Below, piece after piece: positions 1 through 27,695 of a stretch of 64,000 nucleotides of DNA (position 1 is its first letter; the number at the start of each line of letters is the position of its first letter). The stretch is from Ruania zhangjianzhongii (GTDB taxonomy: Bacteria > Actinomycetota > Actinomycetes > Actinomycetales > Beutenbergiaceae), in the NCBI RefSeq assembly GCF_008000995.1, contig NZ_CP042828.1, forward strand, positions 3,462,882 to 3,526,881, written 5' to 3'. The notes beneath the pieces are model-generated. The model was not told where the DNA came from. It saw nothing but the letters and a program-made list of their open reading frames with translations, and did no database searches. The translations under genes and the position numbers were made by a program.

Positions 1-457
1 GGAACACACTGATCCCGCCACCTCCCCGGCTGGACTTGAGCACGAACCGCTCCGGCAAGGAGTCCCAGTCCACCGCATCCGGGTCGGCCCAGCGGCCCAA
101 CTCGGCAGGAATCTGTATCCCATGTGCTGCCGCGAACGCTCGTCCGGCCGTTTTGGTGTAGAGGTCGAGGATCGGCTCGCGCAGGCCCTCGCGGGTGTTC
201 ACACCCGTGGTGTTCGCGCGACGGTGGAAACGGGCCGAGAGTGCGTAGGAGGGCTTACCCGGATCATGCTCCGGGTCGGTTGTCCCGGTCGCCTGGCGCT
301 CGGCCGGAGTCTTGACCTCCGCGGAAAGCACATCGATCTGTGCCTGCAGCACCTCGTTGCCGACCAATCTCTTCTTGAGACGCCCCCGCAGGGTGGTCAG
401 TCGCTCTTCCGCGCGCGCAGAAGTCTCGCTGCGGGTCCGCCCTGGTTCAGTCGTCAC
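1..457 (-). CDS. TupA-like ATP-grasp protein (5' part, cut by window edge)
   Basis: The visible N-terminal 152 residues start at a GTG that overlaps the stop of the preceding gene (GTGTGA), with AGGAG just upstream. They begin with a charged, probably coiled-coil segment and end in FVLKSSRGGGGISVF. This matches the FVLKSDGGAGS nucleotide-binding strand and glycine loop of the other TupA-like proteins here (8157, 9552, 26457). TupA-like ATP-grasp enzymes are named after the teichuronopeptide gene of Bacillus and are expected to ligate an amine to a carboxylate using ATP. The catalytic C-terminal half lies outside the window. The start overlap suggests translational coupling to the degenerate paralogue upstream. 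Confidence 0.75.
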   Translation of the reverse strand, partial: MTTEPGRTRSETSARAEERLTTLRGRLKKRLVGNEVLQAQIDVLSAEVKTPAERQATGTTDPEHDPGKPSYALSARFHRRANTTGVNTREGLREPILDLYTKTAGRAFAAAHGIQIPAELGRWADPDAVDWDSLPERFVLKSSRGGGGISVF

Positions 458-1389
458 ACTGTCTCCTCGTACCGGAAAGTACCCCCGGGTGTCCGGTTAT
501 CCAAGGCTCCGGCACGGTAGGGCTGCATCAGCATGCGAGCGTGTCCGCGGTCGAAGGCCCTCCCCAGACGCTCATCCCACTCAGCGGTCATGCTCGGAAT
601 GCGGGCGAGGGTCACGTCGATCCCGCTGAGGATCATCGCGCCGTTTTTCTCGTGCCAGCCGATCTGGACGTAGGGCCTCGAGATGTGTTCGGACAAGACT
701 CGGGAACTCCGCACAATCTCGCCGAGCCATTCCGGCACTGCGATGTCCGGGGCGTAAGTGTCCCCGGGGCGGATGTCCCCCAGGTCCTTCCCGCCTGAGC
801 TGACATGCTTGACGCGTCCGTCCTGCCGCAGTTCGATCAGCGGAGTTCGGCCTCTGAAAGCGTGTACGACGGCGGTCGGTTCGCTGTCCAGATCGACGCC
901 GAACTGCATGCCGTGCGAGCGGACATAGGCTTCTGTCTGCGCAGGGTCAGTGAAGATGGCACCAGCACCGTCGAGACCAGCGTGAGGATCGCTGGCCTTG
1001 GCGTGGATCCGCTGCATCATCCGCGCACCGGCCACCAGGCTCGGGACGCCATTGGTCTTCTCGACCTTCAACCGAGGCAAGACGCGCTTGCCGTGCTGCG
1101 CACCGAGCACCTCTTGTAAGCGAAGCCGTTCGGCCTTGAGCGCTTCCCGCTGCCGGCCTGCCGCTTCGATCTCACCTCGCACGGTGGCGATCTCTGTCTT
1201 CAAGGTCCGCAGATCTCCATCGGTCGCCCCTGCCGATGGCTGTCCCTGAGTTCCAGAAGACGCTCCCGTCGCAGGCGAATCCGGTTCGTCCGAAGATCCC
1301 TGCGCTGCGTCCTTCGAGCGCCGCATCTTCCGCACGATGCGCGTCACCGTTCCAGTCGAACCCTTATCTTGCCGCATTCTTCGAATCAT
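454..1389 (-). CDS. Degenerate TupA-like protein (probable pseudo-ATP-grasp)
   Basis: About 311 residues from ATG 1389. An ATG at 1377 is as plausible, and the frame is open to 1479 without a good ribosome site. Residues about 55-105 look like a coiled coil. The C-terminal half aligns by eye with the TupA-like proteins nearby: VPEWLGEIVRSSRVLSEHIS corresponds to LPQWLPEMVATARHLSRAIG in the protein at 9552. The stretch holding the FVLKSDGG lysine and glycine loop is absent, and the GEITRAPGG metal-site motif is replaced by SGIDVTLARIPS. It is therefore probably catalytically dead, perhaps a partner or scaffold for the intact enzyme encoded just downstream. The family assignment rests on eye alignment only. 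Confidence 0.6.
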   Translation of the reverse strand: MIRRMRQDKGSTGTVTRIVRKMRRSKDAAQGSSDEPDSPATGASSGTQGQPSAGATDGDLRTLKTEIATVRGEIEAAGRQREALKAERLRLQEVLGAQHGKRVLPRLKVEKTNGVPSLVAGARMMQRIHAKASDPHAGLDGAGAIFTDPAQTEAYVRSHGMQFGVDLDSEPTAVVHAFRGRTPLIELRQDGRVKHVSSGGKDLGDIRPGDTYAPDIAVPEWLGEIVRSSRVLSEHISRPYVQIGWHEKNGAMILSGIDVTLARIPSMTAEWDERLGRAFDRGHARMLMQPYRAGALDNRTPGGTFRYEETV

Positions 1390-1537
1390 CGCACAGCGGT
1401 CTGTGATCCTCGCGACTACTCGCCGCACCCCGAGGGAACTGTTCGCCTTGGCGGGACCCGGGACCGTATGCTGTCTCACGGCCCGAGTTCACGCAGCGGC
1501 CGTTGACGAAACGCACCTGGCCCTAGGGAGTACGGCA

Positions 1538-2797
1538 GTGACAGTAGACGTAGTGATCCTCGGTTTGGGGTACGTCGGATTACCACTCGCGCAAGAGGCG
1601 GCACGCAGCGGTCTGTCGGTCCTCGGCTTCGACATCAGTTCGCACGTGGTCGAGGGGTTGAACGCCGGACGCTCGCACGTGGACGACCTCTCCGCGGCGG
1701 ACATCCAGGAGATGCTCGACGCGGGCTTTCGCGCCACGAGCGACGAAGCCGAGCTGGGCAGCGCCAGCACCATCGTGGTGTGCGTGCCCACGCCTCTCGC
1801 GGAGGACGGCTCCCCTGATCTCGGCGCCGTCACCGGCGCCACCCAGACGGTCGCTCGCCAGCTTCAGCCGGGGCAAGTGGTGATCCTGGAGTCCACCACC
1901 TGGCCGGGCACAACCGAAGAGATCGTCCAGCCGCTGCTGGAAGAGGGTGGGCTCCAGGCCGGCACTGACTTCCATCTCGCGTTCTCGCCAGAGCGGATCG
2001 ACCCGGGCAATCCCACCTACGGCATCAAGAACACGCCGAAAGTCGTCGGCGGCGTCACCCCAGCGTGCACGGAGCGTGCCGCGGACTTCTACCGGAAGTT
2101 CATCGATACCGTAGTGCCAGCCAAAGGTAGCCGTGAGGCCGAGACCGCGAAGCTGCTGGAGAACACCTACCGGCACATCAACATCGCCTTGGTCAACGAG
2201 ATGGCGCGATTCTGCCACGAGCTCGGCATCGACCTCTGGAACGTCATCAGCCTCGCTGCGACGAAGCCGTTCGGCTTCCAGGCCTTCTACCCGGGCCCCG
2301 GCGTCGGTGGGCACTGCATCCCGATCGACCCGAACTACCTCAGCTACACGGTGCGGACCCGACTTGGTTACCCGTTCCGCTTCGTGGAGCTGGCCCAAGA
2401 GGTCAACTCGGGTATGCCGGGGTACGTCACGCGCCGCGCCCAGGACATCCTGAACGAGGACGGCAAGGCGTTGCGCGGTGCGAAGGTGCTACTGCTCGGA
2501 GTCACCTACAAGAAGAACATTGCCGATCAGCGTGAATCGCCCGCTGTTCCCCTTGCTGAGCACCTCCGCTCCGGCGGTGCGGAGGTGACGTACCACGATC
2601 CGGCCGTGCCCGCCTGGAACCTGCCGGACGGGACCCTCGAGCGGGTGCCGGACCTCGAGCAGGCGGTGGGCGCAGCGGACCTGGTGATCTTGGTGCAGAG
2701 CCACTCTGCCTACGACGTGGAAAGCCTTGCCTCGCAGGCCCAGCAGTTCTTCGACACCCGGGGTGTCACCTCCTCGCCAGGGGTGCACCGGTTGTGA
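1538..2797 (+). CDS. wecC: UDP-sugar 6-dehydrogenase (UDP-ManNAc dehydrogenase-like)
   Basis: 419 residues from GTG 1538, preceded by AGGGAG seven bases upstream. The frame is open further 5', but that part is not protein-like. Nucleotide-sugar dehydrogenases oxidise C6 of a UDP-sugar to the uronic acid with two NAD+. The N-terminal Rossmann motif is ILGLGYVGLPLAQ, the catalytic cysteine lies in GPGVGGHCIPIDP (about residue 260), and the C-terminal UDP-binding domain is present. The stop overlaps the start of the exporter permease gene (GTGA), so it heads an operon with the ABC transporter and a GT4. wecB at 56654 could supply UDP-ManNAc. UDP-glucose or UDP-GlcNAc are alternative substrates. 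Confidence 0.85.
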   Translation: MTVDVVILGLGYVGLPLAQEAARSGLSVLGFDISSHVVEGLNAGRSHVDDLSAADIQEMLDAGFRATSDEAELGSASTIVVCVPTPLAEDGSPDLGAVTGATQTVARQLQPGQVVILESTTWPGTTEEIVQPLLEEGGLQAGTDFHLAFSPERIDPGNPTYGIKNTPKVVGGVTPACTERAADFYRKFIDTVVPAKGSREAETAKLLENTYRHINIALVNEMARFCHELGIDLWNVISLAATKPFGFQAFYPGPGVGGHCIPIDPNYLSYTVRTRLGYPFRFVELAQEVNSGMPGYVTRRAQDILNEDGKALRGAKVLLLGVTYKKNIADQRESPAVPLAEHLRSGGAEVTYHDPAVPAWNLPDGTLERVPDLEQAVGAADLVILVQSHSAYDVESLASQAQQFFDTRGVTSSPGVHRL

Positions 2798-3678
2798 CAC
2801 GTCGCGGGCGGGCCGAACAGAAACCGCCCTCCGCACTGGCCAGACTGGCCGCCGACCACGGTCTGACGGCGATCGGAGGCCGTCCCTCACTGGGCGGCTA
2901 TATCCGCTCGTTGTGGCAACGGCGGGCGTTCCTGTGGGCGATGGCGTCGTCCCGCTCTTACGGCAAGAATCAGAACAACTATCTGGGTCAGTTGTGGTCG
3001 GTGCTGAGCCCACTCAGTCTCGCTGCCGTCTATTACCTGGTCTTTGGGCTGCTGCTGGCGCGCGTCAGTGACGGTGTCGACAACTACGTCGGATTCCTGA
3101 CGGTCGGCGTGTTCATCTTCTCCGCAATGGCCAGCACGATCACTTCGGGCTCCACGGCAATCACGAACAACCTCAACCTGGTGCGTGCTCTGCACTTCCC
3201 GCGCGCAATCCTGCCCATCTCCGTGGCGCTGGCAGAAGCGATTTCTCTTGTGCCGGCGATCGCAGTGATGCTGGTCATCGTCGCCGTCACCGAGCAGGCG
3301 GTGAGCTGGTCCTGGTTGTTGCTGCCGGTGGTAGTGGTGCTCTTCTTCCTGTTCAGCGCGGGCGTGGCGATGATCGCCGCACGCTTGGTGGTCGGTGCCC
3401 GCGACCTTCGCAACCTCATCCCGATGGCGATCCGCCTCTTGCGTTACGTCTCCGGGGTATTCTTCCTGATCAGTTCACTCGATGCGCCACGAGTCCTGAC
3501 CGCGGTCATGGAGTACCAGCCGGTCGCCCTCTACCTCACCCTGGTGCGCTCGTGCGTGCTTGGCGAGTTCAGCCCGCAGCTGGACCAGTGGCTGATGGGA
3601 GCCGGGTGGGCGATCGTGACCGCAATCATCGGATTCATTGTGTTCTGGCAAGCTGAGGATCGCTATGGCAGAGACTGA
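2794..3678 (+). CDS. ABC-2 type polysaccharide/teichoic acid export permease
   Basis: 294 residues. GTG start overlaps the dehydrogenase stop. After a soluble N-terminal segment of about 50 residues there are some six hydrophobic segments, for example AAVYYLVFGLLLARV, VGFLTVGVFIFSAMAST and AIVTAIIGFIVFW. This is the arrangement of TagG/Wzm permeases, which move lipid-linked teichoic acids or O-antigens across the cytoplasmic membrane. The gene overlaps the ATPase gene, as is usual for the pair. The transported glycan cannot be read from the sequence; the neighbours suggest a uronic-acid-containing polymer. Confidence 0.85.
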   Translation: MTRRGRAEQKPPSALARLAADHGLTAIGGRPSLGGYIRSLWQRRAFLWAMASSRSYGKNQNNYLGQLWSVLSPLSLAAVYYLVFGLLLARVSDGVDNYVGFLTVGVFIFSAMASTITSGSTAITNNLNLVRALHFPRAILPISVALAEAISLVPAIAVMLVIVAVTEQAVSWSWLLLPVVVVLFFLFSAGVAMIAARLVVGARDLRNLIPMAIRLLRYVSGVFFLISSLDAPRVLTAVMEYQPVALYLTLVRSCVLGEFSPQLDQWLMGAGWAIVTAIIGFIVFWQAEDRYGRD

Positions 3679-4522
3679 CGACCGCGATTTCGACGAGATC
3701 GATCACGAGGCCGACGACCTGGAGGACGCTCCGGCGGAGCCGGCCCATCCCCGATCGCTGGCAGGTGCGCCGGTGGTGGTGGCCGACGATATCCACGTGC
3801 GCTACCGGGTCTTCGGAGGTCGGAAGAGCACTGCTCGTGACATGGGGCGGATCCGTCGCCTGCTGAACCGCTCACGCGCCCATGTCGGTGCCGTCACCGA
3901 GGTCCATGCCGTGCGTGGTGTCTCGTTCGTGGCTCGGCACGGTGAGTCGGTCGGACTGATCGGCACCAACGGAGCTGGAAAGTCCACACTGCTGCGGGCG
4001 ATCGCCGGACTGATGCCGACCAGTTCCGGGACGGTCTACGTGGGCGGCAGCACTGCGCTCCTCGGCGTCAACGCGGCCCTCGTGCCCGCATTGACAGGGG
4101 CGAAGAACGTGATGATCGGTGGACTTGCGCTGGGCCTCACCCCCGATGAGGTGCGTGAGCGGTTCGACGACATCGTCGAGTTCGCCGGTATCGGTGATTT
4201 CATCAACCTTCCGATGAAGGCCTACAGCTCCGGTATGGCGGCTCGGCTCCGATTCGCCATCTCCACTGCGGCGGTCCCGGACATCCTGATGATCGACGAA
4301 GCCCTCGCCACCGGTGACGCCGCGTTCCGCACCCGCAGCCGGCAGAAGATCGAGGAGATCCGCGCGCACGCAGGCACCGTGTTCCTGGTGAGCCACTCGA
4401 CCCAGACCATCGAACGCCTCTGCGACCGAGCGATCTGGATCGACCAGGGCGAGATGGTCATGGACGGCCCCTCCGCCGAGGTGGTCGAGCAGTACCGGCA
4501 GGCGCTGAAGAAGAAGCTGTGA
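3665..4522 (+). CDS. ABC exporter ATPase (TagH/Wzt type)
   Basis: 285 residues from ATG 3665, inside the 3' end of the permease gene. An acidic N-terminal tail of about 35 residues precedes the nucleotide-binding domain. Walker A is GTNGAGKSTLLRA, the signature is YSSGMAARL and Walker B is DILMIDEALATGD, followed by the switch histidine in FLVSHST. The split architecture with an N-terminal RxxG-like lead (VHAVRGVSF) is typical of TagH/Wzt. There is no long C-terminal carbohydrate-binding domain of the Wzt kind. It powers the permease encoded at 2794. The stop overlaps the GTG of the next gene. Confidence 0.88.
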   Translation: MAETDDRDFDEIDHEADDLEDAPAEPAHPRSLAGAPVVVADDIHVRYRVFGGRKSTARDMGRIRRLLNRSRAHVGAVTEVHAVRGVSFVARHGESVGLIGTNGAGKSTLLRAIAGLMPTSSGTVYVGGSTALLGVNAALVPALTGAKNVMIGGLALGLTPDEVRERFDDIVEFAGIGDFINLPMKAYSSGMAARLRFAISTAAVPDILMIDEALATGDAAFRTRSRQKIEEIRAHAGTVFLVSHSTQTIERLCDRAIWIDQGEMVMDGPSAEVVEQYRQALKKKL

Positions 4523-5616
4523 CCACTACGGCCCTGCGCATTCTGGTCGTCACGGTCGTGCACGACCCGGAGGATGCGCGGATCCGCTACCGGCAGATCC
4601 CTGCTCTGCGCGAGGCGGGCCATGCGATCACCTACGCCGCCCCGTTCCACGCCTTCGGACGCACCGTGCCGACCGGAGTGCACGGTATCGATCTGCCACG
4701 GGCGACCGGCCGCCGCCGCCTGGTCGCCGTCCGTGCCGCGCGGCGGCTGATTCTCAAGGTCGGCCCCAGTGCCGACGTGATCCTGCTGCATGACCCCGAC
4801 CTGCTGCTCGCGGCGGCCGGTCTGGCCAAGCGGGTCGCGCCGATCGTCTGGGACGTGCACGAGGACACCGCCGCAGCTCTGTCCATGCGCAGCTGGGTGC
4901 CGAACCTGCTACGCCGACCGCTCGCCTGGGCCGTGCGGCTGGCAGAACGGCTCGCGGAGCGCCGGTTCCACCTGCTGCTCGCCGAGCACAGCTATCGGCA
5001 GCGGTTCCGGAAAGCGCACCCGGTCGTCCCGAACTCGGTGCGGGTGCCCGCGGACCGGCCCGAGCCGCCAGGCCCCGACCGGGTGGTGTACCTCGGCAAA
5101 ATCTCCCGGGCGCGCGGCGGCGAAGAGATGCTCGCGCTCGCTCGAGCGGTTCCGGAGCTGACCTTCCAGCTCATCGGCCCCGCGGAAGCAGCGCTGCGTC
5201 CGCAGCTGGCTGCAGCGCACCGGGCGGGCGAGCTGGAGTGGTTCGACTTCCTTCCCAATGAGCAGGCACTGGCGAAGTTGCCCGGTGCTCTGGCCGGGCT
5301 GGCGTTGCTCCATGACGAGCCGAACTACGCCCGATCCCTGCCGACCAAGCTGGTGGAGTACCTGGCCCATGGGGTGCCGGTGGTGAGCACTCCGAACCAG
5401 ACCGCCGTCGACCTGGTAGAACGCTCCGGCGGGGGTGCCGTCGTGCCGTTCGGGGACGTCTCCGCGGCAGCAGCAGCGCTACGGCGCCTAGCAGCAGACG
5501 AGACACGCCGCCGGTCGCGGGCCACCAGCGGGTATGACTACGTGGCCGCTCACGTGAACTGGAACCGCGACGGAGCAGAGTTCGTCCGAGTGATCGAGGG
5601 CTTCAGCAGGAGCTAG
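4519..5616 (+). CDS. Glycosyltransferase family 4
   Basis: 365 residues, GTG start overlapping the ATPase stop. It has a GT-B fold layout: N-terminal acceptor domain starting LRILVVTVVHDPEDARIRYR, then a donor-binding domain with VVYLGKISRARGGEEML and the family 4 signature LPTKLVEYLAHGVPVVSTP (about residues 275-295). It probably transfers a sugar from a nucleotide donor to the growing polymer at the inner face of the membrane. It is the last gene of the dehydrogenase-exporter operon and ends tail to tail, overlapping by four bases, with the cation transporter on the other strand. Donor and linkage are unknown. Confidence 0.82.
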   Translation: MTTTALRILVVTVVHDPEDARIRYRQIPALREAGHAITYAAPFHAFGRTVPTGVHGIDLPRATGRRRLVAVRAARRLILKVGPSADVILLHDPDLLLAAAGLAKRVAPIVWDVHEDTAAALSMRSWVPNLLRRPLAWAVRLAERLAERRFHLLLAEHSYRQRFRKAHPVVPNSVRVPADRPEPPGPDRVVYLGKISRARGGEEMLALARAVPELTFQLIGPAEAALRPQLAAAHRAGELEWFDFLPNEQALAKLPGALAGLALLHDEPNYARSLPTKLVEYLAHGVPVVSTPNQTAVDLVERSGGGAVVPFGDVSAAAAALRRLAADETRRRSRATSGYDYVAAHVNWNRDGAEFVRVIEGFSRS

Positions 5617-6569: not shown

Positions 6570-6625
6570 CTGTCAGTCCTCTCGCCCCGAGTGCTCCGGG
6601 GAGAGCATAGCGGTCCGGCGGCCTG

Positions 6626-8060: not shown

Positions 8061-8156
8061 GCGGCCAGCCTACAATGGCCACAACCGCAACCCGCAAACC
8101 CTGTTTGATTACCCACCGACGGTGACCCACACCAGCGGTAGGGACGAGAGATACCC

Positions 8157-9350: not shown

Positions 9351-9525
9351 AAGAGTAACTCTCTGGCGGGACACAGCAACGGAGGCCCTCCGGTATCGCA
9401 GGGTATACACCGCATCCCGCGCCATCATCCTCGAGGTAAACGTGCCGCGAATTCGGTATGAACTTTTCGAGATGTGGTCGGCCCGTATCGCACCTATCGT
9501 CCGTTGAAACGTATCGTTGGAGTCC

Positions 9526-9555
9526 ATGTCGTCAACCGCACCTTCCCGTCGATGA
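9526..9555 (+). CDS. Possible 9-codon leader micro-ORF
   Basis: ATG at 9526 opens a nine-residue frame (MSSTAPSRR) whose TGA overlaps the ATG of the TupA-like gene at 9552 (ATGA). GGAG lies only three bases before the ATG, closer than usual. It could be a coupled leader, or the relic of a different N-terminus for the downstream gene. Support is weak. Confidence 0.2.
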   Translation: MSSTAPSRR

Positions 9556-10706
9556 GTTCCACGAAAGCTTGGCTGCGCGCCCGCATCCGGCCGATCGCTG
9601 TTCGCGACCGAACCATCGCAGAACAGAAGTCGACCCTCACCAAGCTCCGCGGCGAACGAGAGCGGTACCGGCAGCAGATCGAGACGCTCACCCAGGACCT
9701 TGAACACACCCGGACGGCTCACCACCTGGAGCAGGAGCGCCAACGGGAGCGGGCCAATGGCACCCCCTCTTTCCAGCACCTGCTGCACTCCCTCCGGCAA
9801 CAGGCGAACATCTCCGTGCGGTACGACGGATCAGCACAGACGCCGCTGATGCAGATCCCCTACAAGCTGCGGAACTATCGGCTCGCCCAGTCGCACGGCA
9901 TTGCGGTGCCGGAGATCCTTGCCGTGTGGGAGTCGGCCGCCGCCGTCCGCGACCTCGGTCACCTTCCTGCGCAATTCGTCCTCAAGTCGGACGGCGGAGC
10001 AGGCTCGTCCGGGGTGTTCCTGCTCGAACGAACCGGCACGGACGGGTACACCATGCTCGGCACGACTAGCACCTTCAGCGAGCACGAACTCACCTCGCAT
10101 CTGGCCAGCCTGGATTCTCGTCGCGTGCGGCCTCCCTTCTTCGTCGAGGCCTTCTTGAATACCGGCCCGTCGACCGGCCCGATCCCGGAGGACGTGAAGA
10201 TCTACGCGAGCCACGGGCGCATCCTGCAGGTCATGCTCCGCCGCGTCGGCAAGCACGGGGCACCGAGCACGATCCGCACCAGGTTCGTCGACGCCGAGGG
10301 AGAGGACCTCGGGTCGGTGGCGCTGGACCGCACCGGCGACGACACGATCCCCCTCCCCCAGTGGCTGCCCGAGATGGTCGCTACCGCCCGGCACTTGTCC
10401 CGCGCGATCGGCGTCCCGTTCTGCCGGGTCGACCTCTACGACGGTGTCGACGGCCCGATCCTCGGCGAGATCACCCGAGCTCCCGGCGGTACGCAGCGCT
10501 ACAGCGAAGACCACGACCGATGGATGGGCGAGCAGTGGCTGCGCGGCGCGGTCGATCTTGGTCGAGACCTGGCGGGCGGCCGGCCCTACGGCGTCCTGCA
10601 CGGCGACCATCCAGCCACAAACTTCTATCCGGCGGGCCACCTCTCGCAGGCGGCTGATCCCGGTCCGTGGCAGCAGCAGGTGGTCCACTGCGGCCGGTGG
10701 TGCTGA
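9552..10706 (+). CDS. TupA-like ATP-grasp ligase
   Basis: 384 residues from ATG 9552. The same frame is open from a GTG at 9474, so the N-terminus may be 26 residues longer. A coiled-coil N-terminus (about residues 10-70) precedes the core: IPYKLRNYRLAQSHG, FVLKSDGGAGSSG, RPPFFVEAF, PEDVKIYASHG, FCRVDLYDG and the metal-site motif GEITRAPGG. The protein ends in HCGRWC, the C-terminal CxxWC tail shared with the proteins at 8157 and 26457. GC content is typical of the genome, unlike its neighbour. The role is inferred to be ATP-dependent ligation in surface glycopolymer decoration. It ends six bases from the convergent DUF3499 gene. Confidence 0.82.
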   Translation: MSSTKAWLRARIRPIAVRDRTIAEQKSTLTKLRGERERYRQQIETLTQDLEHTRTAHHLEQERQRERANGTPSFQHLLHSLRQQANISVRYDGSAQTPLMQIPYKLRNYRLAQSHGIAVPEILAVWESAAAVRDLGHLPAQFVLKSDGGAGSSGVFLLERTGTDGYTMLGTTSTFSEHELTSHLASLDSRRVRPPFFVEAFLNTGPSTGPIPEDVKIYASHGRILQVMLRRVGKHGAPSTIRTRFVDAEGEDLGSVALDRTGDDTIPLPQWLPEMVATARHLSRAIGVPFCRVDLYDGVDGPILGEITRAPGGTQRYSEDHDRWMGEQWLRGAVDLGRDLAGGRPYGVLHGDHPATNFYPAGHLSQAADPGPWQQQVVHCGRWC

Positions 10707-19437: not shown

Positions 19438-19441
19438 TCCG

Positions 19442-20500
19442 CTAGCGTTGCACGTCCACCGGGGGCAGGTGGACCACCGGGGTGGCGTGGCGTCCCTCCC
19501 GCTGATACCAGTCCACCATCGTCTCGATCCCCTCCGGCAGGCTGACCGAGGCAGTGAACCCGACCTCGCGGATCCGGTCCGCGGTGAAGGCGGTCTCCGC
19601 TGCGGAGAGTTTCTGTACCCGGGCCGAGGTGATCGGCAGGTCCTTGCCGGTGGCGCGGCCGACCAGATCGAACGGTTTGGCGGCGAGCAGCACCGGCGCC
19701 AACGGCAGCCGGGCGCGAGGTTCGCGCCGGCCGAGCGCCCGGTACACCAGGGACACCGTCTCCCGCGAGGCCAGGTCTGGCTTGTCGACGTAGTTGTACA
19801 CCTCCGGCTCACCGTCCGGCAGTCGGGAGGGCGCCGACCACAGGTAGCCGATCGCCGCCACCACGTTGGCGACGAAACACATACTCTTCCGGTTCGCGCC
19901 CGGCCCCACCGGGAGGAACCGGTGGCGGTCGATCTGGCGGATCAGCTTGTACAGGTTCGCGAAGTTCCGTGGGCCGAACACCACAGCAGGGCGCACGATC
20001 AGCGCGCGCCGCCCGCCACCGGCCTCCCACTGGCGGTAGACCGCTTCGGCGGCGAGCTTGGAGCGGCCGTAGTCGTTGACTGGCTCCGGCGTGGTGTGCT
20101 CGTCCGGTGGGGTGGCGTGCTCGCCGTAGACGGCGACCGAGGAGTAGAAGCACAGGTTGGTGATGCCGTGGTACTCCATCGCGGCGCAGATCGCGCGGGC
20201 GCCGCCGACGTTGACCGATTCGAAGGTGGCGGTGCCGATGCCGAAGTCGTGGTGGGCGGCGGCCAGGTTGAGCACGGCGGTGCAGCCGGCCATCGCCTCG
20301 ATCAGCGCGTCGACATCGCGAACGTCGCCGATCTGGGTGGGCCGGGCGCTGTGCGGGTCCGGATGCAGGTCGAAGCGGACCAGCTCCACGCCGAGGGCGT
20401 CGAAGACCGGCGCCAGGTGGGAGCCGACGAAGCCCGAGCTGCCGAGGACCAGCACCCGGTCACCAGAGGTCAACGTGTTCGTCACCAGCATCTCCTTCAC
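19442..20500 (-). CDS. NAD-dependent epimerase/dehydratase (extended SDR)
   Basis: 352 residues; an ATG at 20491 would give 349. The Rossmann motif is VLVLGSSGFVGSHL, the NAD-site motif is LNLAAAHHDFG, and the catalytic pair is in NDYGRSKLAAE (YxxxK), with the active-site serine in FYSSVAVYG. A substrate loop RPAVVFGPRNFANL follows. Extended short-chain dehydrogenases of this kind change nucleotide-sugar stereochemistry or oxidation state. The substrate is not evident. It lies just upstream of manA and divergent from a GT2 gene, consistent with surface sugar synthesis. Confidence 0.85.
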   Translation of the reverse strand: MKEMLVTNTLTSGDRVLVLGSSGFVGSHLAPVFDALGVELVRFDLHPDPHSARPTQIGDVRDVDALIEAMAGCTAVLNLAAAHHDFGIGTATFESVNVGGARAICAAMEYHGITNLCFYSSVAVYGEHATPPDEHTTPEPVNDYGRSKLAAEAVYRQWEAGGGRRALIVRPAVVFGPRNFANLYKLIRQIDRHRFLPVGPGANRKSMCFVANVVAAIGYLWSAPSRLPDGEPEVYNYVDKPDLASRETVSLVYRALGRREPRARLPLAPVLLAAKPFDLVGRATGKDLPITSARVQKLSAAETAFTADRIREVGFTASVSLPEGIETMVDWYQREGRHATPVVHLPPVDVQR

Positions 20501-20604
20501 CTGGTGGCTGTGCTACCACCGGTGGTCACGGTACCCGTCCCGGCTGAGGGTACTGTGGACGCTGCCCGGAACCGCCGGGGTACCCACCAGATGCGGGAGG
20601 TCCG

Positions 20605-21381
20605 ATGCCGCGGGTGTCCGTGGTGATGCCGGTGCACAACGCCGCCGAGACCGTGGCGGCCTCGATCCGATCGGTGCAGGCACAGTCGCACCCCGACTGG
20701 GAGCTGCTGGTCACCGATGACGGCTCGAGCGACGACTCCTGGCAGATCCTGACCGAGCTGGCCCGGCTGGACTCGCGGATCCGCCCGGAGCAGAGCACCG
20801 AGCAGCTCGGCGCCGCACGGGCACGCAACGCCGCTATCGAGCGGGCCACCGGGGAGTACGTGGCGTTCCTGGATGCCGACGACCTGTGGCTAGCGGACAA
20901 GCTCACCCGCCAGCTCGACTTCGCCGCCGAGCACAAGGCGCCGGTGACCTTCACCGCGTACTACAAGATCGCCGCAGATTTCGACGGCGACGCTCGCGAC
21001 TTCTCGCCGAACGGTCGGGTGGTGCCCGCCCGGGACGAGCTGACCTATTCCGCGCTGCTGCAGCAGAACTACATCGGCTGCCTGACCGGGATGTACCAGG
21101 TGAGCGCGCTGGGCAAGCGATTCATGCCGGACCTGCGCAAGCGCCAGGACTACGGGCTGTGGCTGTCCCTGCTCCGGGACGGCACCGTCGCCCGCGGGCT
21201 GGACGAGCCGCTGGCGCTGTACCGGGAGCAGCGGGCCGGTTCATTGTCCGGGTCCAGCCGGCTGTCGTTGGCGAAGTACAACTGGCAGCTGTATCGGAAG
21301 GTGGAAAAGCTCTCCCTGCTCCGGTCCGTGTGGGCGCTCGGTCAGGCCACGGTGCGTTCCACCCTCAAGCGCCGGATCTGA
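20605..21381 (+). CDS. Glycosyltransferase family 2
   Basis: 258 residues from ATG 20605, preceded by GGGAGG. A single GT-A domain: PRVSVVMPVHNAAETVAASI, DDGSSDDSWQIL, the metal site FLDADDLWLADKLTRQL and a downstream acceptor segment with KRQDYGLWLSLLRDG. It resembles the short WaaE/WcaA-type glycosyltransferases that add one sugar in capsule or teichoic acid pathways. It is divergent from the epimerase-manA pair. The 171 bases after it (to 21552) hold nothing recognisable. Confidence 0.85.
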   Translation: MPRVSVVMPVHNAAETVAASIRSVQAQSHPDWELLVTDDGSSDDSWQILTELARLDSRIRPEQSTEQLGAARARNAAIERATGEYVAFLDADDLWLADKLTRQLDFAAEHKAPVTFTAYYKIAADFDGDARDFSPNGRVVPARDELTYSALLQQNYIGCLTGMYQVSALGKRFMPDLRKRQDYGLWLSLLRDGTVARGLDEPLALYREQRAGSLSGSSRLSLAKYNWQLYRKVEKLSLLRSVWALGQATVRSTLKRRI

Positions 21382-21552
21382 GCGTCGTCTGACTCTCCAG
21401 TGCACTACTCAGCAACGTAGCCGCTCCGCCCAACGGCGGCTCTTACCCAACGCGTGCTGCAGCTCGGCGATCCTTTCGTGACGTTCTTCCGACGCAGAAC
21501 CCCGCCTACACCGCACCGTTGACCGCGAAAGTAACGAATTGCCGTTCCTCGG

Positions 21553-24500
21553 TCATCGACGGCGCTCGAGCTCGTCGATGGCCGTCACAACCCGGGCACT
21601 GTTGTCGCGGTCGCGGTAAGTGAAAGAGTCGGCGACCCGATTCGCATACATCTGCTCGACTGCGCAGTCCCTTTCGAGCAGGTGCTCTAAGGCATCGAGA
21701 GTCTCGTCCACTGAGTGAGTGACCGGGCCGTACCCGTCCCGCTCGTAGTCGAACCAGGACGCCGAAGCGTGCCCCGCCTCGTAGTCATCCTCGTCGAAGC
21801 GCGCGTAGATGACCGGGGTGCCCAAATAGGCAACATCGAAGTGCACCGACGAATAATCGGTGAGGAAGGCATCGCAGGTGCGCAGGAGCTCCTGGAAGCT
21901 GGTCAGGTTGGTGTCCGCTACTCCGATCCGGCCAGCCGCCGCCAGGGTCCGATCGAAGTGCGCGGTCATGTTGTAGTGGGGCAGAAACGTCAGCCGGTAG
22001 TCGTACTTCTCCAGCATCTGGAGCAGCCGAGGACTGTGCAGCACCCCGGAGATAAACCGCTCGTATGCCGAGCCTTCGAAGGGAATCTGGCCCGGGTTCG
22101 CCCTGCCACTCAGTCGAGGCACCAGGTATTGCCGCCAGGTCGGCATGAAGAGGACAGTTCGACTTCGTGGCGCCGGAGTAAGGCCGTCATACCGGGGCAT
22201 GCCGATCTCGTGAATCTGCCGGTCGTAGCCGGACACGGCACGGAGTGCTTCGCTCTCACGCGACATGACCGTCAGCACCATGTCATAGCCGGAGAGACCG
22301 CGCTTAAAGGCGTTGGGGTTGAGATGCACACCGTGCTTGAGGTACACGCGCAGGGCACCGATCCGCCAGGCGAGGTGTCGCACGTAGCTTTCCTGACCCC
22401 ACGGTGTCGGTGTGAGGTAGCGGATCGAATAGGCGTTGGCCAGCACACCGGCGTGCAGCATGAGCACCTGATGTCGCAGCGAGGAGTGATCGACGACATT
22501 TCCCAGGTGCGCCACCCGATCGCGCTGCGGACTCGAGCGGTCGATGACGTAGTAGACACGACGCTTCGGGTGCGTCTTGCGAAGGTGTTTGAACAGATGC
22601 AGACCATTGTCCTGGGCGGTGTCGGTCCGCTCCCCGATCAACCATATCTGCCGACCAGCGAAGAACGGGCGGGTCAGTAGGCGCACCAACCGCAACAAGA
22701 CCATTCGACGACTCCCCCGCCGTCGAAGGAGTGAACCTAGATCCTTGCGCACCATCGTCGCCCCCCAGCGGAGCCGTCCTTGCTGACCACGGCCGCTCTG
22801 GACGGTGAGGAAGGCGACGAGGCCGCTCCCCGTGGTGTGCAGCAGGTAGCGGACGACTTTGCTCGGGTCCGTCGGCGCGACCATCTCGACGGTACGGGCA
22901 TCGAGCAAGACGCCCTTCGCTGGGCGCATCCGTCGACTGATTCGGAATGCCTCAACTTCTGTTTCCAAGTGAAGTGCCAGCCGATAATTTCCATCTACGG
23001 CAGCGTCCAGCGAAAGTGTGCCGCTACAGTCCTCCCACACCGCATTTCCATGCTTGTCGACACGCTCAGTGAGTCGAACCGAATCTGACGTGATGCGGCG
23101 ATCTTGGGCTTCCAGGACGAGGCGGTACCGCCAAGGCGGACGACGCATTCCAGGAGGGAACCTCGCGGCCATCCATCCGAACACCTGAATATCGCCATCA
23201 CGGGGATCGACGGCCTCGACTCGCGGTGTAGAAGCGAGGAGAGAAAGGCGACCCAAGTAATCAGCGAAAGGCCCAGCCACACTCGGCGCCACAGATAACG
23301 CGTGGGCAATATATGAGGCTACCTCTAACTGTGAAGTCTGCCTTGTCCAAACCAAGAGTGGAACAGGGGTATCGAGTTCTACTTCACGTAATCTACGTTC
23401 CTCCCGACGAAATGCTCGGGACCAAGATCGCACCCCTCGCACCCTGGGTAAGCTACTGATCGAAACATACCGCTCATCCGAATTCTCTAAATCAATACAC
23501 GCGGCGTCAGCCAACTCGCTCCGCGAGCCGCCCTCAGCCTCGATGAACCGGACACTCGGATGATGAACTGCCGCCTCGCCCACGTCCGCCCGGGCGTCCC
23601 GTGGGTAGATGACCGTTATCGAAGTTCCGAAAGCGAGTTCGGTACGAACCCTATGCAACGTATCGACAAGTCTCCACGCCACATTAGCCGTAACCATGAA
23701 GACGACACCGACGTCGTCCGGCGGCAAGCCCTCAACAACAGCGGACGATCCCGAAACCGCCACGACGTCCGGCTCATCCATCACCCTTCCTGGCGGATCG
23801 GCCAGCGGAACCTCCACTGGCTGCGATTGTGGCGCTCCAACAAATTGACTGATCGCGCCGATATACGCGCCACGTCCGAACCGTTCCCTCATGATCGCTA
23901 GACCACGATCGGATTGCTCTCGGTAGCGAGCCGGGTCAGCATACAGAGAGCGCACAAGATCGGAAACCTCAGATGGGTCCGCATAGAGCGCACTCTCGCC
24001 GAATATGGAGGCGAACCGAGGGGGCAAGATTGTGACGCAACCGCTCGCAATCGCGCGAGCAGCCGTAGGCTCGAACACCTCGATCGAAGACGGATGAGGA
24101 AAGTACGCGTAGAAGTCGAGTTGATCAACGAACTCTCGCAGGTCGAACTCGCGCTTCCGAAGTGAGACCCACGAGGTTGGACGCTCTGCGGACCCGAGCA
24201 GTTCCGTCACCGGTTCGTCGTCACCCAGAATTCGCACGCTCATGCTGCCATCGGCGGGATACACGCTGAGCAGCTCTTCGCGAGACGCCGGCCAAGCCGA
24301 TGTCGCGTCATCACCTTGGCGACCCAACACAGGTAGGGAACTCCGGAAACTGTCCCGACCGACATTCGACGCAGCGACGTCCACAATATCGGGAACGACG
24401 ATCTCGGTGAGGCGGTCGGACGGGATCTCGTCGGAAAGTAGCGACTGCACCCTGGCGCTCTGTGCCGCCCAGATCGGCTCCGCTGAAAACAACGAACGAA

Positions 24501-26328
24501 CATTCCTGTCGCACGCACTCGGTGAGTAAAGATCGAGCCCATCTATGCTTCTCGGCGCCTTGTCCGCCACGAGGACCACCTGACCGATATCAAGCGCGCT
24601 CTTGTTCGCCGGCGGGAACTGCAGCAGCTCTGGCGACCGCACTATCAGCAAGGAAGCAGATGAGACCTGGTCTAGTGCGACAAAATCCACGACCCGGGAA
24701 TTGATCAGATCCAAAACCTCGGGACGGAGCGGTAGTCGACGTCGACTCAAATGCAAATACGACTCTATTTGGCTCACGCCAACCCGATACCCAGCGTCTG
24801 CCAATGCAGAAATCTGGTCGAGCAACGCCCGCTGGGCTGTCTCGAGGTGGCGCCAATCGCTCAGCAACAAAACATCGTAGCGAGGCGGATTCACGGCGAT
24901 TCGATCCTGATCGATTTGGAATCGCTGGGGAATTGCGAAACGTCGCTCATCCTGGAATCGCGGCAAGTATAATTCACGACGCGTCCTGACACCATTGTGC
25001 CACCGCTCGTAAGCGTTTCTATAGATGTAGCGCGAGACATGATGCCATCCGGGAGTGAAATCGGCCCGGGAAAGGGAGCCACTACCCATACGGTACATCG
25101 ACAGAGGTGCTTCCAAGTCTATCGTCAACCGTCCCGTTGCCCGCTCGAGCCGTTTACGATACTCGGTATCGGCACCTTTTCTCGAACTATCGAAATATCC
25201 GACCGTGTGCAATGCAAGCGCACGACGAAACATCAACGATACAGCGTTCTCTTGACTCGTCTCATATCCGGGCCTCTGGAAGTCAAGGTTCTCTTGCACT
25301 CTGAAACAGTAGCTCCGCGAGGCTGGCGCGTCGGGGTTCTCCAGCAGCGCCTTTGCCTGCAATTCGATCCGCCTCGGATGTGACCAGTCGTCCGCATCCT
25401 GACATGTAACGAACTCGCCCGAAGCTAAGTCAAGTGCAGCGTTCCGCGCAAGATAGGTGCCCCCGTTCCTCGCCATCCGATGGAGTCGAATTCGCGGGTC
25501 GAGGGCGGCGCACTCGGCCAGCAGTTCCGTGTACTCGGGTGGTGAGGCGTCGTCCATCAGGAGAATCTCAATATTGCGCCACGTCTGGTTACAGATTGAC
25601 CGAACGGATGTGACGAGTCCCGGGCCTGGCTTGAACACTGACAAGATCACGGTCACAAGCGGGCCGTCGTCAACCGCGGAATCGACCTCGCAGGTGAGGC
25701 CGTCAAAAGGCGTCATCGCCCCATCAGTCACCGCGATCGGCTCGAGCTCATGTTGCGCGAACATCTTGTCAACCAGACGCTGCCAGGCGCCGCGCTCCTT
25801 GCGATCCTCACCGGCGCCGCGTCCGCTCGCGAACGGGTTGGTCAGGTCTGCGTTCAGGAACAGACGGGAGTGCGGCTTCAAGTCAGTGAAATCCGGAAGC
25901 CACGACCTGAGAAGGTCGGTGGCACCTGCCTGCCACAACCTGTCGACGACGACCTGCTGATCCGCGGCTGAGAACGCTGAGCGCCCATGCTGGCGCCTGA
26001 CCTCTTCTAGCAGCATGACGGAGTCACCGAGATCACCGTCGTCAAGGTTCTGCATACCGATCAGTTGCGCCAGCGCGATCGTCCACGCAGGTTCGAGTGG
26101 TGGGAGTGGATCGCCTGACAGGCGGCTAGCTCGGGCCTTCGAGATGAGGTCGTCACAGGACCAGCCGCCCGGGGCCGCCGCATAGGCAAACAAGTCACGT
26201 GCGGCTCGCGACCTGGTACGAAGAGCCGTCCGTAGGAGCGCGTTCATGCCCCGCCGCATCGGCAGTGTCCCGAGGTAACTCGTAGCAAGAGCGGGCTGCA
26301 ACCGAGCCGTTCGCTCGTTCTTGGTCAT
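21553..26328 (-). CDS. Multidomain glycosyltransferase: helical domain + GT2 + GT4-like + TagF
   Basis: 1591 residues from ATG 26328. Domains in order: a helical region (about 1-200, with ALRTRSRAARDLFAY and LFLNADLTNPFASG), a GT2 domain (about 220-440, CQDADDWSHPRRI), a GT4-like GT-B domain (about 480-850, VLLLSDWRHLETAQR, FEPTAARAIASGCVTILPPR), an unassigned region ending in a beta-sandwich-like part (about 880-1190), and a C-terminal CDP-glycerol glycerophosphotransferase (TagF-like) domain (about 1230-1591: VYYVIDRSSPQRDRV, LKHGVHLN, FMPTWRQY, TDYSSVHFDVAYL). It probably builds a phosphopolyol-containing wall polymer. The middle part is less GC-rich than both ends. Confidence 0.85.
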   Translation of the reverse strand: MTKNERTARLQPALATSYLGTLPMRRGMNALLRTALRTRSRAARDLFAYAAAPGGWSCDDLISKARASRLSGDPLPPLEPAWTIALAQLIGMQNLDDGDLGDSVMLLEEVRRQHGRSAFSAADQQVVVDRLWQAGATDLLRSWLPDFTDLKPHSRLFLNADLTNPFASGRGAGEDRKERGAWQRLVDKMFAQHELEPIAVTDGAMTPFDGLTCEVDSAVDDGPLVTVILSVFKPGPGLVTSVRSICNQTWRNIEILLMDDASPPEYTELLAECAALDPRIRLHRMARNGGTYLARNAALDLASGEFVTCQDADDWSHPRRIELQAKALLENPDAPASRSYCFRVQENLDFQRPGYETSQENAVSLMFRRALALHTVGYFDSSRKGADTEYRKRLERATGRLTIDLEAPLSMYRMGSGSLSRADFTPGWHHVSRYIYRNAYERWHNGVRTRRELYLPRFQDERRFAIPQRFQIDQDRIAVNPPRYDVLLLSDWRHLETAQRALLDQISALADAGYRVGVSQIESYLHLSRRRLPLRPEVLDLINSRVVDFVALDQVSSASLLIVRSPELLQFPPANKSALDIGQVVLVADKAPRSIDGLDLYSPSACDRNVRSLFSAEPIWAAQSARVQSLLSDEIPSDRLTEIVVPDIVDVAASNVGRDSFRSSLPVLGRQGDDATSAWPASREELLSVYPADGSMSVRILGDDEPVTELLGSAERPTSWVSLRKREFDLREFVDQLDFYAYFPHPSSIEVFEPTAARAIASGCVTILPPRFASIFGESALYADPSEVSDLVRSLYADPARYREQSDRGLAIMRERFGRGAYIGAISQFVGAPQSQPVEVPLADPPGRVMDEPDVVAVSGSSAVVEGLPPDDVGVVFMVTANVAWRLVDTLHRVRTELAFGTSITVIYPRDARADVGEAAVHHPSVRFIEAEGGSRSELADAACIDLENSDERYVSISSLPRVRGVRSWSRAFRREERRLREVELDTPVPLLVWTRQTSQLEVASYIAHALSVAPSVAGPFADYLGRLSLLASTPRVEAVDPRDGDIQVFGWMAARFPPGMRRPPWRYRLVLEAQDRRITSDSVRLTERVDKHGNAVWEDCSGTLSLDAAVDGNYRLALHLETEVEAFRISRRMRPAKGVLLDARTVEMVAPTDPSKVVRYLLHTTGSGLVAFLTVQSGRGQQGRLRWGATMVRKDLGSLLRRRGSRRMVLLRLVRLLTRPFFAGRQIWLIGERTDTAQDNGLHLFKHLRKTHPKRRVYYVIDRSSPQRDRVAHLGNVVDHSSLRHQVLMLHAGVLANAYSIRYLTPTPWGQESYVRHLAWRIGALRVYLKHGVHLNPNAFKRGLSGYDMVLTVMSRESEALRAVSGYDRQIHEIGMPRYDGLTPAPRSRTVLFMPTWRQYLVPRLSGRANPGQIPFEGSAYERFISGVLHSPRLLQMLEKYDYRLTFLPHYNMTAHFDRTLAAAGRIGVADTNLTSFQELLRTCDAFLTDYSSVHFDVAYLGTPVIYARFDEDDYEAGHASASWFDYERDGYGPVTHSVDETLDALEHLLERDCAVEQMYANRVADSFTYRDRDNSARVVTAIDELERRR

Positions 26329-26456
26329 GTGTCGAGTACTCCTCCAGTTGCCAGTAGCCGACACAGGATATCTGACCGTGTGAACTCCATGCCGTACTCT
26401 GTTCCAGTCAGTCACGGCCTGCTCACCCCAACCGTGGGCTCAGATGGAACGGACGT

Positions 26457-27695
26457 ATGCTCGGTACCACGAGGCGGCAGCGCGCCCTCACAGGGGCGGT
26501 CCTGATTGTTGCTACCGGGACCGTCACCGCCGTGTTACTCGACCTGCCTCAGATCGGGCTAGCAGGCATCATTGCCCTGGTCACACTCGGCGTCCTGGTG
26601 GTCCTCAACATTCGGGCTCGACTCAAAGCCCTTGCCAGCGGCGTCCGCCGTGCCGGTCGAGGTGAGGATTCCTCCCGATCCCTTCGTCAGCGCCTACGCG
26701 AACTAGAGGGGGAACTTGCGTCCGTCCAGCACGAGCGTGACCGTCTCGACGACCTGACCAGTGCCTCGTTTCGACAGTCGATCCGGCAGTACATTCGGGT
26801 GGTGCGCGCCGAGCATAAGCTCAAAGATCCGCATCGCTCCGCGGCCCTTCAGCTGCCGCACAAGCTACGGAACCTGGAGTTCGCTGCCAGCCACGGCGTC
26901 GGGGTCCCCACCGCCTATCAGGTGTGGCCGGACATCGCATCGATTGACCTAGGCGCTCTGCCGGAGACCTTCGTGCTCAAGTCTGACGGGGGCGCAGGCT
27001 CAGTCGCTGTCTTCCCCCTGCAACGGCTCGACGACGATCGGTACGGGGTCATTGGCGGGAAGGCCGAATACACCGAGTCCGAGTTGCTAGGACACCTGCG
27101 CTCTCTCGGCCGTCGCGCGCGCGCTCCCTACTTTGCCGAGGAGCTGCTCGTCGCTGCGGACCGTGCCCCGCTCCCCGACGACGTCAAGTGCTATATGTTC
27201 TACGGCGAGGTTGGACAGATCTTGGTCCGCAAAGTTGGCGAGCACGGTGACCCGTCCACCATCCGGCTCAAGTTCGTTAACGAACAGGGCAAGGACTACG
27301 GCCCCGTCGCAGTCGGTAGAACACACGACGAGACCATCCAGGTGCCGAACTCTCTGCCCGAGATCTCCACCGCCGCCAAGCATCTGTCCCGGGCGATCGG
27401 ACTACCGTTCTGCCGCGTCGATCTCTATAACACTTCGCGCGGGATCGTACTCGGCGAGATCACCCGAGCTCCGAGTGGTGGCAATGAGTATTTCGTCGAG
27501 GACCATGATGAGATGCTCGGCTGGCAATGGGTCCGGGCCAGCGCTCGGTTGGAGGTCGACCTGAACTCCGGGCGGCCGGCTGGGCCGGTTTTTGGCACAG
27601 CAGCGGATCTACGCCTCTATCCACCTAGTGATGATCCTCTCTCACCGGCCAACTTCGGCCGGACCACCGTGGACTGCACGCAATGGTGCGAATGA
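26457..27695 (+). CDS. Membrane-anchored TupA-like ATP-grasp ligase
   Basis: 412 residues from ATG 26457. Residues about 11-50 form two hydrophobic helices (ALTGAVLIVATGTVTAVLL and LAGIIALVTLGVLVVLNI), then a coiled coil to about 100. The TupA-like core follows: LPHKLRNLEFAASHG, FVLKSDGGAGSVAV, APYFAEELL, PDDVKCYMFYGE, FCRVDLYNT and GEITRAPSGG. The tail is DCTQWCE, matching the CxxWC ends of the proteins at 8157 and 9552. It is divergent from the giant glycosyltransferase. The anchor suggests ligation at the membrane, perhaps on a lipid-linked glycan; substrates unknown. Confidence 0.82.
   Translation: MLGTTRRQRALTGAVLIVATGTVTAVLLDLPQIGLAGIIALVTLGVLVVLNIRARLKALASGVRRAGRGEDSSRSLRQRLRELEGELASVQHERDRLDDLTSASFRQSIRQYIRVVRAEHKLKDPHRSAALQLPHKLRNLEFAASHGVGVPTAYQVWPDIASIDLGALPETFVLKSDGGAGSVAVFPLQRLDDDRYGVIGGKAEYTESELLGHLRSLGRRARAPYFAEELLVAADRAPLPDDVKCYMFYGEVGQILVRKVGEHGDPSTIRLKFVNEQGKDYGPVAVGRTHDETIQVPNSLPEISTAAKHLSRAIGLPFCRVDLYNTSRGIVLGEITRAPSGGNEYFVEDHDEMLGWQWVRASARLEVDLNSGRPAGPVFGTAADLRLYPPSDDPLSPANFGRTTVDCTQWCE

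What the first reader, a model, noticed from the sequence alone, without database searches (positions are those of the whole stretch)
1..27695. Five TupA-like ATP-grasp proteins in one surface-glycan region
Sequences at 1, 454 (degenerate), 8157, 9552 and 26457 share an FVLKSDGGAG-type nucleotide motif and a GEITRAPGG-type metal motif (the 454 copy lacks the first). TupA is named after Bacillus teichuronopeptide synthesis. Two UDP-sugar 6-dehydrogenases and WecB nearby would supply uronic acids, and several glycosyltransferases and ABC exporters are present. I infer a uronic-acid polymer whose carboxyls are joined to amino compounds by different ligases. Such a multi-ligase system in an actinobacterium appears undescribed to me.
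Basis: partly seen in the sequence, partly recalled or inferred. Interest (0 to 1): 0.75.

Follow-up and report, generated by a model that had tools for sequence, protein, structure and literature searches.

The report
Glycan-locus set of TupA-like amide ligases
An actinobacterium carries four long-diverged TupA-like ATP-grasp ligases and one apparently inactive relative inside one cell-surface sugar-polymer region, where they probably join amino compounds to acidic sugars; the enzyme kind is known, but this many in one region, two of them beside their own polymerases, is unusual.

Summary
Four proteins (A, cut by the window edge; C; D; E) pass the Pfam TupA cut-off (PF14305). They are the only four in the 5.1-Mb genome (a Ruania or close kin) and lie within about 28 kb. 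The fifth (B) is related but has lost both the nucleotide loop and the two metal ligands. It does not look like decay: B stands directly before A in three species and evolves under constraint. The model of D (pLDDT 88) is an ATP-grasp fold nearest LysX/ArgX, Ddl and RimK ligases. A relative, Campylobacter Cj1438C, is reported to amidate glucuronic acid in a capsule, so the chemistry is known in kind.

Dehydrogenases occur in all 8 Ruania genomes examined, with or without TupA. Within the genus, glycan-locus TupA tracks Glyphos_transf polymerases (4 of 4 versus 0 of 4), in fixed pairs (E with one, A/B with another); outside the genus that link fails. Three TupA-free species show the same locus with the modules absent. 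No PgsB-type poly-glutamate synthase was found, which argues against Bacillus-like teichuronopeptide. New features: a C-terminal C-x2-W-C tail, a conserved pseudo-ligase, an acylphosphatase fusion in a relative. Substrates are unknown.

The parts
1..457 (-). 5' part of TupA-like ligase A (whole gene L005 18284-19339, 351 aa); type 2, no C-x2-W-C tail
   Evidence: PF14305 64.2 bits for the whole protein; only the piece to window base 1 lies in the window
454..1479 (-). B: TupA-related pseudo-ligase directly upstream of A (4-base overlap); exact start uncertain
   Evidence: No Pfam TupA hit; blastp to E 8e-9; orthologues before A in G005 and G007; motif residues lost in 3 of 3
1337..2797 (+). 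Nucleotide-sugar 6-dehydrogenase DH1 (true start probably near 1540)
   Evidence: TIGR03026 420.6 bits (cut-off 189.8), under every equivalog cut-off shown, so its sugar is not fixed; PF03721; DH1 also in TupA-free G002 and G006, not seen in the 20 kb taken from G003
2794..4522 (+). ABC exporter: permease 2794-3678 and ATPase 3638-4522
   Evidence: PF01061 and PF00005; present in TupA-free G002 and G006
4519..5616 (+). GT4-type glycosyltransferase
   Evidence: PF13692
8157..9350 (+). TupA-like ligase C, 397 aa, C-terminal CSQWC; between manB and the DUF5719 gene
   Evidence: PF14305 61.1 bits; GC 0.570 against 0.681 for the window; the site has about 1 kb without TupA in G002, G003, G006
9552..10706 (+). 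TupA-like ligase D, 384 aa, C-terminal CGRWC (open frame from 9474)
   Evidence: PF14305 53.3 bits; AlphaFold2 pLDDT 88.3; ATP-grasp fold matches
19442..20500 (-). NAD-dependent sugar epimerase/dehydratase-like protein; genus core
   Evidence: NCBIfam epimerase- and reductase-type hits, all below cut-off; present in G002, G003, G006
20605..21381 (+). GT2 glycosyltransferase; genus core
   Evidence: PF00535; present in G002, G003, G006
21553..26415 (-). Glyphos_1: 1620-aa GT2 + Glyphos_transf polymerase-like protein, divergent partner of E
   Evidence: PF04464 121.2 bits and PF00535; 70-79% identical C-terminal part beside E in G005, G004 and a MAG
26457..27695 (+). TupA-like ligase E, 412 aa, N-terminal hydrophobic segments, C-terminal CTQWC
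   Evidence: PF14305 62.8 bits; hydropathy 2.5 for the 19 residues from position 34
27843..29981 (+). AT3-SGNH acyltransferase, one of three mosaic copies
   Evidence: PF01757 and PF19040; near-identical first 1.2 kb in three copies
33480..34835 (-). Second nucleotide-sugar dehydrogenase DH2; genus core
   Evidence: PF03721; TIGR03026 305 bits; present in G002, G003, G006
56549..57700 (+). WecB, UDP-GlcNAc 2-epimerase
   Evidence: TIGR00236 251.8 bits, cut-off 210.15

Best explanation
A, C, D and E are ATP-grasp carboxylate-amine ligases of the TupA-like amidoligase family that act in the cytoplasm on a cell-surface glycopolymer or its precursors before ABC-dependent export. Each would use ATP to activate a carboxylate as an acyl-phosphate and join it to an amine. 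The likeliest carboxylate is a uronic acid residue of the polymer (GlcA, ManNAcA or a di-N-acetyl uronic acid). The amine (amino acid or amino alcohol) is unknown and probably differs between paralogues. E and A/B are encoded in accessory modules together with their own Glyphos_transf-type polymerase; C and D sit without one at another site of the same locus. B is a conserved, catalytically dead paralogue that probably serves A as a structural or substrate-binding partner. Shown here: family membership, fold of D, motif conservation, module linkage, sites without the modules in sister species, constraint on B. Inferred: activity, substrates, direction of the linkage, role of B.
Against: No activity data; a fold does not show a substrate, and ATP-grasp kinases and carboxylases are among the fold matches too. 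Dehydrogenases occur in all 8 Ruania genomes irrespective of TupA, so they do not single out uronic acids. Outside the genus the polymerase link is not general: 8 of 14 TupA-bearing genomes searched lack PF04464 altogether (5 of the 10 behind the named loci), and only 3 of 13 named loci, all Ruania or the MAG, have it within 10 kb. No glycerol-3-phosphate cytidylyltransferase at E 1e-5 in the window's genome; of the four PF04464 carriers only G005 has a match, below the cut-off. One strong and one weak IspD-family hit in G000. So what the Glyphos_transf proteins polymerise is uncertain. Some type-1 or related TupA genes lie outside this locus (G001 L047; G004 L045, L046). The 4 versus 4 genus pattern is not phylogenetically independent.
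Confidence: 0.5

Rival explanations
1. The ligases are N-acylating enzymes: an amino sugar or amino polyol in the polymer supplies the amine, and a free acid (amino acid, hydroxy acid, succinate) is activated. Uronic acids are not involved.
For: Within Ruania, TupA tracks Glyphos_transf and not the dehydrogenases. ATP-grasp ligases close to the D model (LysX/ArgX, Ddl, RimK) are amino-acid ligases. A DegT aminotransferase lies just right of the window (L006 1985-3091).
Against: The one characterised TupA-like glycan enzyme I found here, Cj1438C, uses the uronic carboxylate. Dehydrogenases are near TupA in 11 of 13 named loci.
Confidence: 0.25
2. The reader's version read as a Bacillus-like teichuronopeptide: a uronic-acid polymer with linked poly-glutamate or peptide.
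For: Family name; dehydrogenases and WecB in the window. tupA is tied to teichuronopeptide synthesis in B. halodurans (PMC8153356 passages).
Against: No PgsB match in 8 of 8 Ruania genomes, while the same search finds B. subtilis; that PgsB would be the enzyme needed is my assumption. B. halodurans C-125 is said to have no tupA paralogue (the sentence is ambiguous), unlike the 4-5 here. Linkage in the genus is with Glyphos_transf polymerases.
Confidence: 0.08
3. Serotype-like turnover: horizontally gained glycan cassettes, some with a TupA, pile up in a variable locus; some copies are redundant or silent, and there is no coordinated multi-ligase system.
For: C has GC 0.570 in a 0.681 window. 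TupA numbers vary 0-6 among same-genus genomes. Three TupA-free species keep the backbone without the modules. Mosaic AT3 copies.
Against: Each paralogue has relatives at the same kind of place in other species, and catalytic motifs are intact in four. Module gain and function are compatible, so this is partly a statement about history.
Confidence: 0.17

Closest known systems
Campylobacter jejuni Cj1438 C-terminal domain (TupA-like capsule amidoligase)
   Same: TupA-like ATP-grasp; acts in surface-polysaccharide synthesis; amide with a uronic C6 carboxylate is reported (PMC11800379, passages)
   Different: There the domain is fused behind a GT2 and a middle domain; here the ligases are stand-alone with an N-terminal helical stretch and, in type 1, a C-x2-W-C tail. 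I did not compare the sequences
TupA of alkaliphilic Bacillus (teichuronopeptide)
   Same: Family name and cell-wall role
   Different: Said to have no paralogue in B. halodurans (PMC8153356 passages); no PgsB in Ruania
Linked ATP-grasp ligases in general (as summed up in the CDC123 paper, PMC4431377, one passage)
   Same: Several ligases of one region acting in succession, teichuronopeptides and O-antigen being named as products
   Different: No actinobacterial glycan locus, ligase-polymerase module or dead partner is described in that passage
Streptomyces teichuronic-acid-like polymer on wall teichoic acid (utr genes; PMC13274773, section 8 and passages)
   Same: Actinobacterial wall polymer with a uronic acid; the window region plus L006 has WecB and an oxidoreductase, aminotransferase and hexapeptide acyltransferase set that could make a di-N-acetyl uronic acid
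   Different: ATP-grasp has 0 occurrences in its main text; a polyol-phosphate backbone is not shown here
LysX/ArgX, RimK and Ddl ligases
   Same: ATP-grasp fold and metal motif
   Different: 9-18% identity in the 50 VIA rows; small-molecule or protein substrates

Membership tests
TupA-like ATP-grasp amidoligase (PF14305) | Profile score over the curated cut-off | tested here: met
   A 64.2, C 61.1, D 53.3, E 62.8 bits against 25; B not
TupA-like ATP-grasp amidoligase (PF14305) | ATP-grasp fold | tested here: met
   For D only: pLDDT 88.3, fold matches. B model poor, 60.6. A, C, E not modelled
TupA-like ATP-grasp amidoligase (PF14305) | Nucleotide-loop lysine and metal-binding Asp and Glu | tested here: met
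   Present in A, C, D, E; Asp and Glu lost in B and its 2 orthologues. Roles assigned by alignment to VanA/Ddl and recall
TupA-like ATP-grasp amidoligase (PF14305) | ATP-dependent amide formation | not testable with these tools
   Needs purified enzyme
Bacillus teichuronopeptide pathway | Poly-gamma-glutamate synthesis (marker PgsB, my choice) | tested here: not met
   0 of 8 Ruania genomes at E 1e-5; control B. subtilis positive. Another synthase is not excluded
Bacillus teichuronopeptide pathway | Polymer with uronic acid and glutamate | not testable with these tools
   Chemical analysis needed
Wall teichoic acid (glycerol- or ribitol-phosphate) | Glyphos_transf-type polymerase | tested here: met
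   Three PF04464 genes in G000
Wall teichoic acid (glycerol- or ribitol-phosphate) | CDP-glycerol or CDP-ribitol supply | tested here: inconclusive
   No TIGR01518 match in G000 at E 1e-5; one strong PF01128 hit (probably IspD) plus one weak; other donor enzymes not searched
Teichuronic acid | Uronic-acid nucleotide-sugar synthesis genes in the locus | tested here: met
   Three dehydrogenases and WecB; they are not specific to TupA carriers

The most novel reading that the evidence does not exclude
A combinatorial amidation system for a wall glycopolymer: each TupA-like ligase decorates one polymer segment with its own amine, E and A/B being dedicated to their own Glyphos_transf polymerases, with B a conserved dead ATP-grasp subunit that lends A its acceptor specificity, and with the C-x2-W-C tail as a docking or metal site whose place is taken by an acylphosphatase domain in one relative.
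Probability: 0.2. Interest if true: 0.7.

Novelty: new variant of a known kind. Interest (0 to 1): 0.45.

Why it matters
The name 'ATP-grasp fold amidoligase' is used by annotators, yet the only glycan substrate I found for a TupA-like ligase is in a Campylobacter capsule. A locus with four intact, long-diverged paralogues, one dead partner, sister species without the modules, and what looks like a cultivable carrier (Ruania albidiflava DSM 18029, taken to be G005, with A, B, E and a D-like gene at the same site) is a direct test bed for what these ligases attach and how specificity is set. Charge-cancelling amides on acidic wall polymers would bear on pH and salt tolerance and on phage or toxin binding (inference).

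Tried and rejected
Rejected: B as a decaying pseudogene (open frame, same place in 3 species, dN/dS below 0.4; dS is near saturation and the G005 frame runs on upstream, so the ratio is rough). Rejected: C, D, E as recent tandem duplicates (37-43% identity; separate groups). Rejected: a phage or defence origin (no phage match at E 0.001; the one PADLOC hit, E 0.0005, is to residues 15-66 of D). Plasmid relatives are distant (6 records, none covering 80% of the query). Rejected as sole argument: the dehydrogenases as proof of a uronic substrate. Other family models hit C and D below their cut-offs (PF14397; TIGR02291, best 25.6 bits against 314.2). Led nowhere: Rfam (0 matches); the B model (pLDDT 60.6, confident only from about residue 200 to 320), made from an alignment without its true orthologues; sequence search of solved structures (best E 0.0013). 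The tRNA-Glu call at 16007-16092 lies antisense inside a coding frame and is probably false. The listing (10 of 19 papers shown) gave no title on Ruania wall chemistry; I opened none of them.

Rows dropped: in the tree the second, shorter TupA frame of L035 and the two pieces of the frame-broken L036 gene were left out, as were distant hits other than G131 and G226. C-x2-W-C counts use the 23 type-1 rows of that tree: 19 have it, 4 Serinicoccus rows have two cysteines without the tryptophan. The dropped L035 and L036 frames do not show it.
Full report
WHAT IS THERE. The window is G000:C2:3462882-3526881 of a 5.1-Mb genome. A same-genus genome, G005, has a contig of the same length (98,535 bases) and the same TupA neighbourhoods as Ruania albidiflava NZ_ATWL01000014, so I take the window to be from a Ruania species or close kin. 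A runs off the window; its whole protein is L005 18284-19339, 351 aa. A, C, D and E pass the PF14305 cut-off and are the only four PF14305 matches of the genome. Four matches in 5.1 Mb all within about 28 kb is far from a chance scatter (my estimate, order 1e-6). C, D and E are 37-43% identical to each other. B passes no model but matches E, D and C over its C-terminal half (E 8e-9, 1e-7, 2e-6).

CATALYTIC STATE. A, C, D and E keep the lysine of the V-L-K-S loop and the R-[VI]-D and G-E-[IL]-T residues. The profile of 17 type-1 proteins aligns the latter with the RVDLF...NEVN motif of VanA. In B both the Asp and the Glu are replaced, in the window copy and in the G005 and G007 orthologues. B nevertheless stands directly before A in three species, beside the divergent dehydrogenase DH1 and the convergent Glyphos_2, and its dN/dS is about 0.19, 0.35 and 0.29 for the three pairs, against 0.12-0.18 for A (dS near saturation). 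A search with B in 99 related genomes found it only beside A, in those three; the other matches were to TupA proteins.

TWO TYPES AND A TAIL. Type 1 (C, D, E) ends in C-x2-W-C. In the tree 19 of 23 type-1 rows have it; the 4 Serinicoccus rows keep two cysteines but not the tryptophan. Type 2 (A) lacks it. E and its relatives have hydrophobic N-terminal segments (top 19-residue hydropathy 2.2-3.0 in 5 of 5 E-type proteins; 0.5-1.1 in A, B, C, D). In G004 one more relative, away from this locus, carries an acylphosphatase domain at its C-terminus (PF00708, 77.4 bits), which fits an acyl-phosphate-forming enzyme.

HOW THE SET AROSE. The tree puts A, C, D and E in separate groups: A with G005 and G007, C with G004, D with G004, E with G005, two G004 copies and a MAG; deeper forks are open. 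So these are old paralogues or separate gains. Copy numbers in the genus: G000 4, G004 6 (4 on the contig of this locus, 2 elsewhere), G005 4 (3 on the contig of this locus), G007 1, G001 1 (not in this locus), and 0 in G002, G003, G006. In an evenly drawn sample of 396 genomes of the phylum, 18 had PF14305 at E 1e-5 and none had more than G000's 4. Among the genomes behind the named loci, Nesterenkonia sp. has 4 and O. laminariae 3.

THE LOCUS WITHOUT TUPA. In G002, G003 and G006, which have no TupA, the backbone is the same: DH2, GT2, epimerase, manA, large GT2, DUF5719, manB, and in G002 and G006 also GT4, ABC exporter and DH1. Between manB and DUF5719 they have 983-990 bases; the window has 3591, about the difference made by C and D. 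Between GT2 and DH2 the three have about 1.2-1.3 kb; the window has 12 kb, holding Glyphos_1, E, an AT3 gene and further frames. B, A, Glyphos_2 and Glyphos_3 lie between DH1 and DH3, where G002 has 7 kb and G006 almost nothing. TupA genes are therefore accessory modules in a genus-wide glycan locus. This also shows that dehydrogenases and exporter are not specific to TupA: PF03721 occurs in 8 of 8 genomes.

WHAT TRACKS TUPA. PF04464 occurs in G000, G004, G005 and G007 and in none of the other four: exactly the genomes with TupA in this locus. Pairs are specific: E beside Glyphos_1 (70-79% identical to the window's) in G000, G005, G004 and a MAG; A/B beside Glyphos_2 (82-83%) in G000, G005, G007; Glyphos_3 in all five. 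Outside Ruania the rule breaks: of 10 genomes behind the named loci, 5 have PF04464 (four Serinicoccus, one MAG) and 5 do not (four Ornithinimicrobium, one Nesterenkonia), and of four further TupA carriers one has it. There the more constant neighbour is a nucleotide-sugar dehydrogenase: 11 of 13 named loci; ABC genes 11 of 13, AT3-SGNH 9 of 13, Glyphos_transf 3 of 13 within 10 kb (L025/L032 and L031/L034 share a genome).

MECHANISM. Cj1438C is described as a TupA-like ATP-grasp domain that forms an amide with the C6 carboxylate of GlcA (PMC11800379, passages; the primary papers were not held). On that precedent I take amidation of a polymer uronate as the likeliest reaction. Sugar supply: three dehydrogenases, whose sugar no equivalog model settles (DH3 comes nearest, UDP-glucose dehydrogenase 609 bits, cut-off 757); WecB; and, just right of the window, an oxidoreductase, a DegT aminotransferase and a hexapeptide acyltransferase (L006 994-4206), a set that I recall from 2,3-diacetamido uronic acid pathways. 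Streptomyces is reported to carry such uronic acids in a polymer on wall teichoic acid (PMC13274773, section 8). Against a simple teichoic reading: no TIGR01518 match in G000. Against Bacillus-like teichuronopeptide: no PgsB in 8 of 8.

VERDICT. A real, correctly spotted cluster; a known enzyme kind in an unusual multiplicity and arrangement; substrates unproven. The most testable new points are the ligase-polymerase modules and the conserved dead partner B.

Noticed in passing
window 27843-29981; L005 6657-8807 and 8893-11079: Three AT3-SGNH acyltransferase genes share a first 1.2 kb at 99.4-99.8% DNA identity with the window copy, while the SGNH halves differ (77% or no alignment to the window copy; 90% over nearly full length between the two L005 copies): mosaic genes, perhaps a recombination-driven cassette system for surface acylation.
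   Followed up: partly
window about 7530 (6626-8060): manB (phosphomannomutase) is split by a frameshift: two frames match an intact relative from G002 back to back (residues 1-177 and 177-477). Sequencing slip or real lesion; described only.
   Followed up: partly
L046 8906-10285: TupA-like domain fused to an acylphosphatase (PF00708) in a same-genus genome.
   Followed up: partly
L047 8969-10078: A type-1 TupA-like gene directly beside a gene that looks like glutamyl-tRNA synthetase, with none of the glycan query genes found in the 20 kb around it; the synthetase name is from its visible sequence, not from a family search.
   Followed up: no
window 14935-15114: 27-base tandem repeat (5.7 copies, 96% match) coding a GEATDGEHA-like acidic stretch in the 1290-aa glycosyltransferase-like protein.
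   Followed up: no
L006 994-4206: Oxidoreductase, aminotransferase and hexapeptide acyltransferase set resembling di-N-acetyl uronic acid synthesis, about 65-68 kb from the window start.
   Followed up: partly
L031, L034: A MAG labelled Acidobacteria carries E, Glyphos_1 and Glyphos_3 at 61-79% identity to the window's proteins; the contigs look like a Ruania-type actinobacterium, so the bin label is doubtful.
   Followed up: no
window 28001-30000: Strong local GC skew (+0.217) and AT skew (-0.259) over the AT3 gene, the largest of the 2-kb steps in the window.
   Followed up: no
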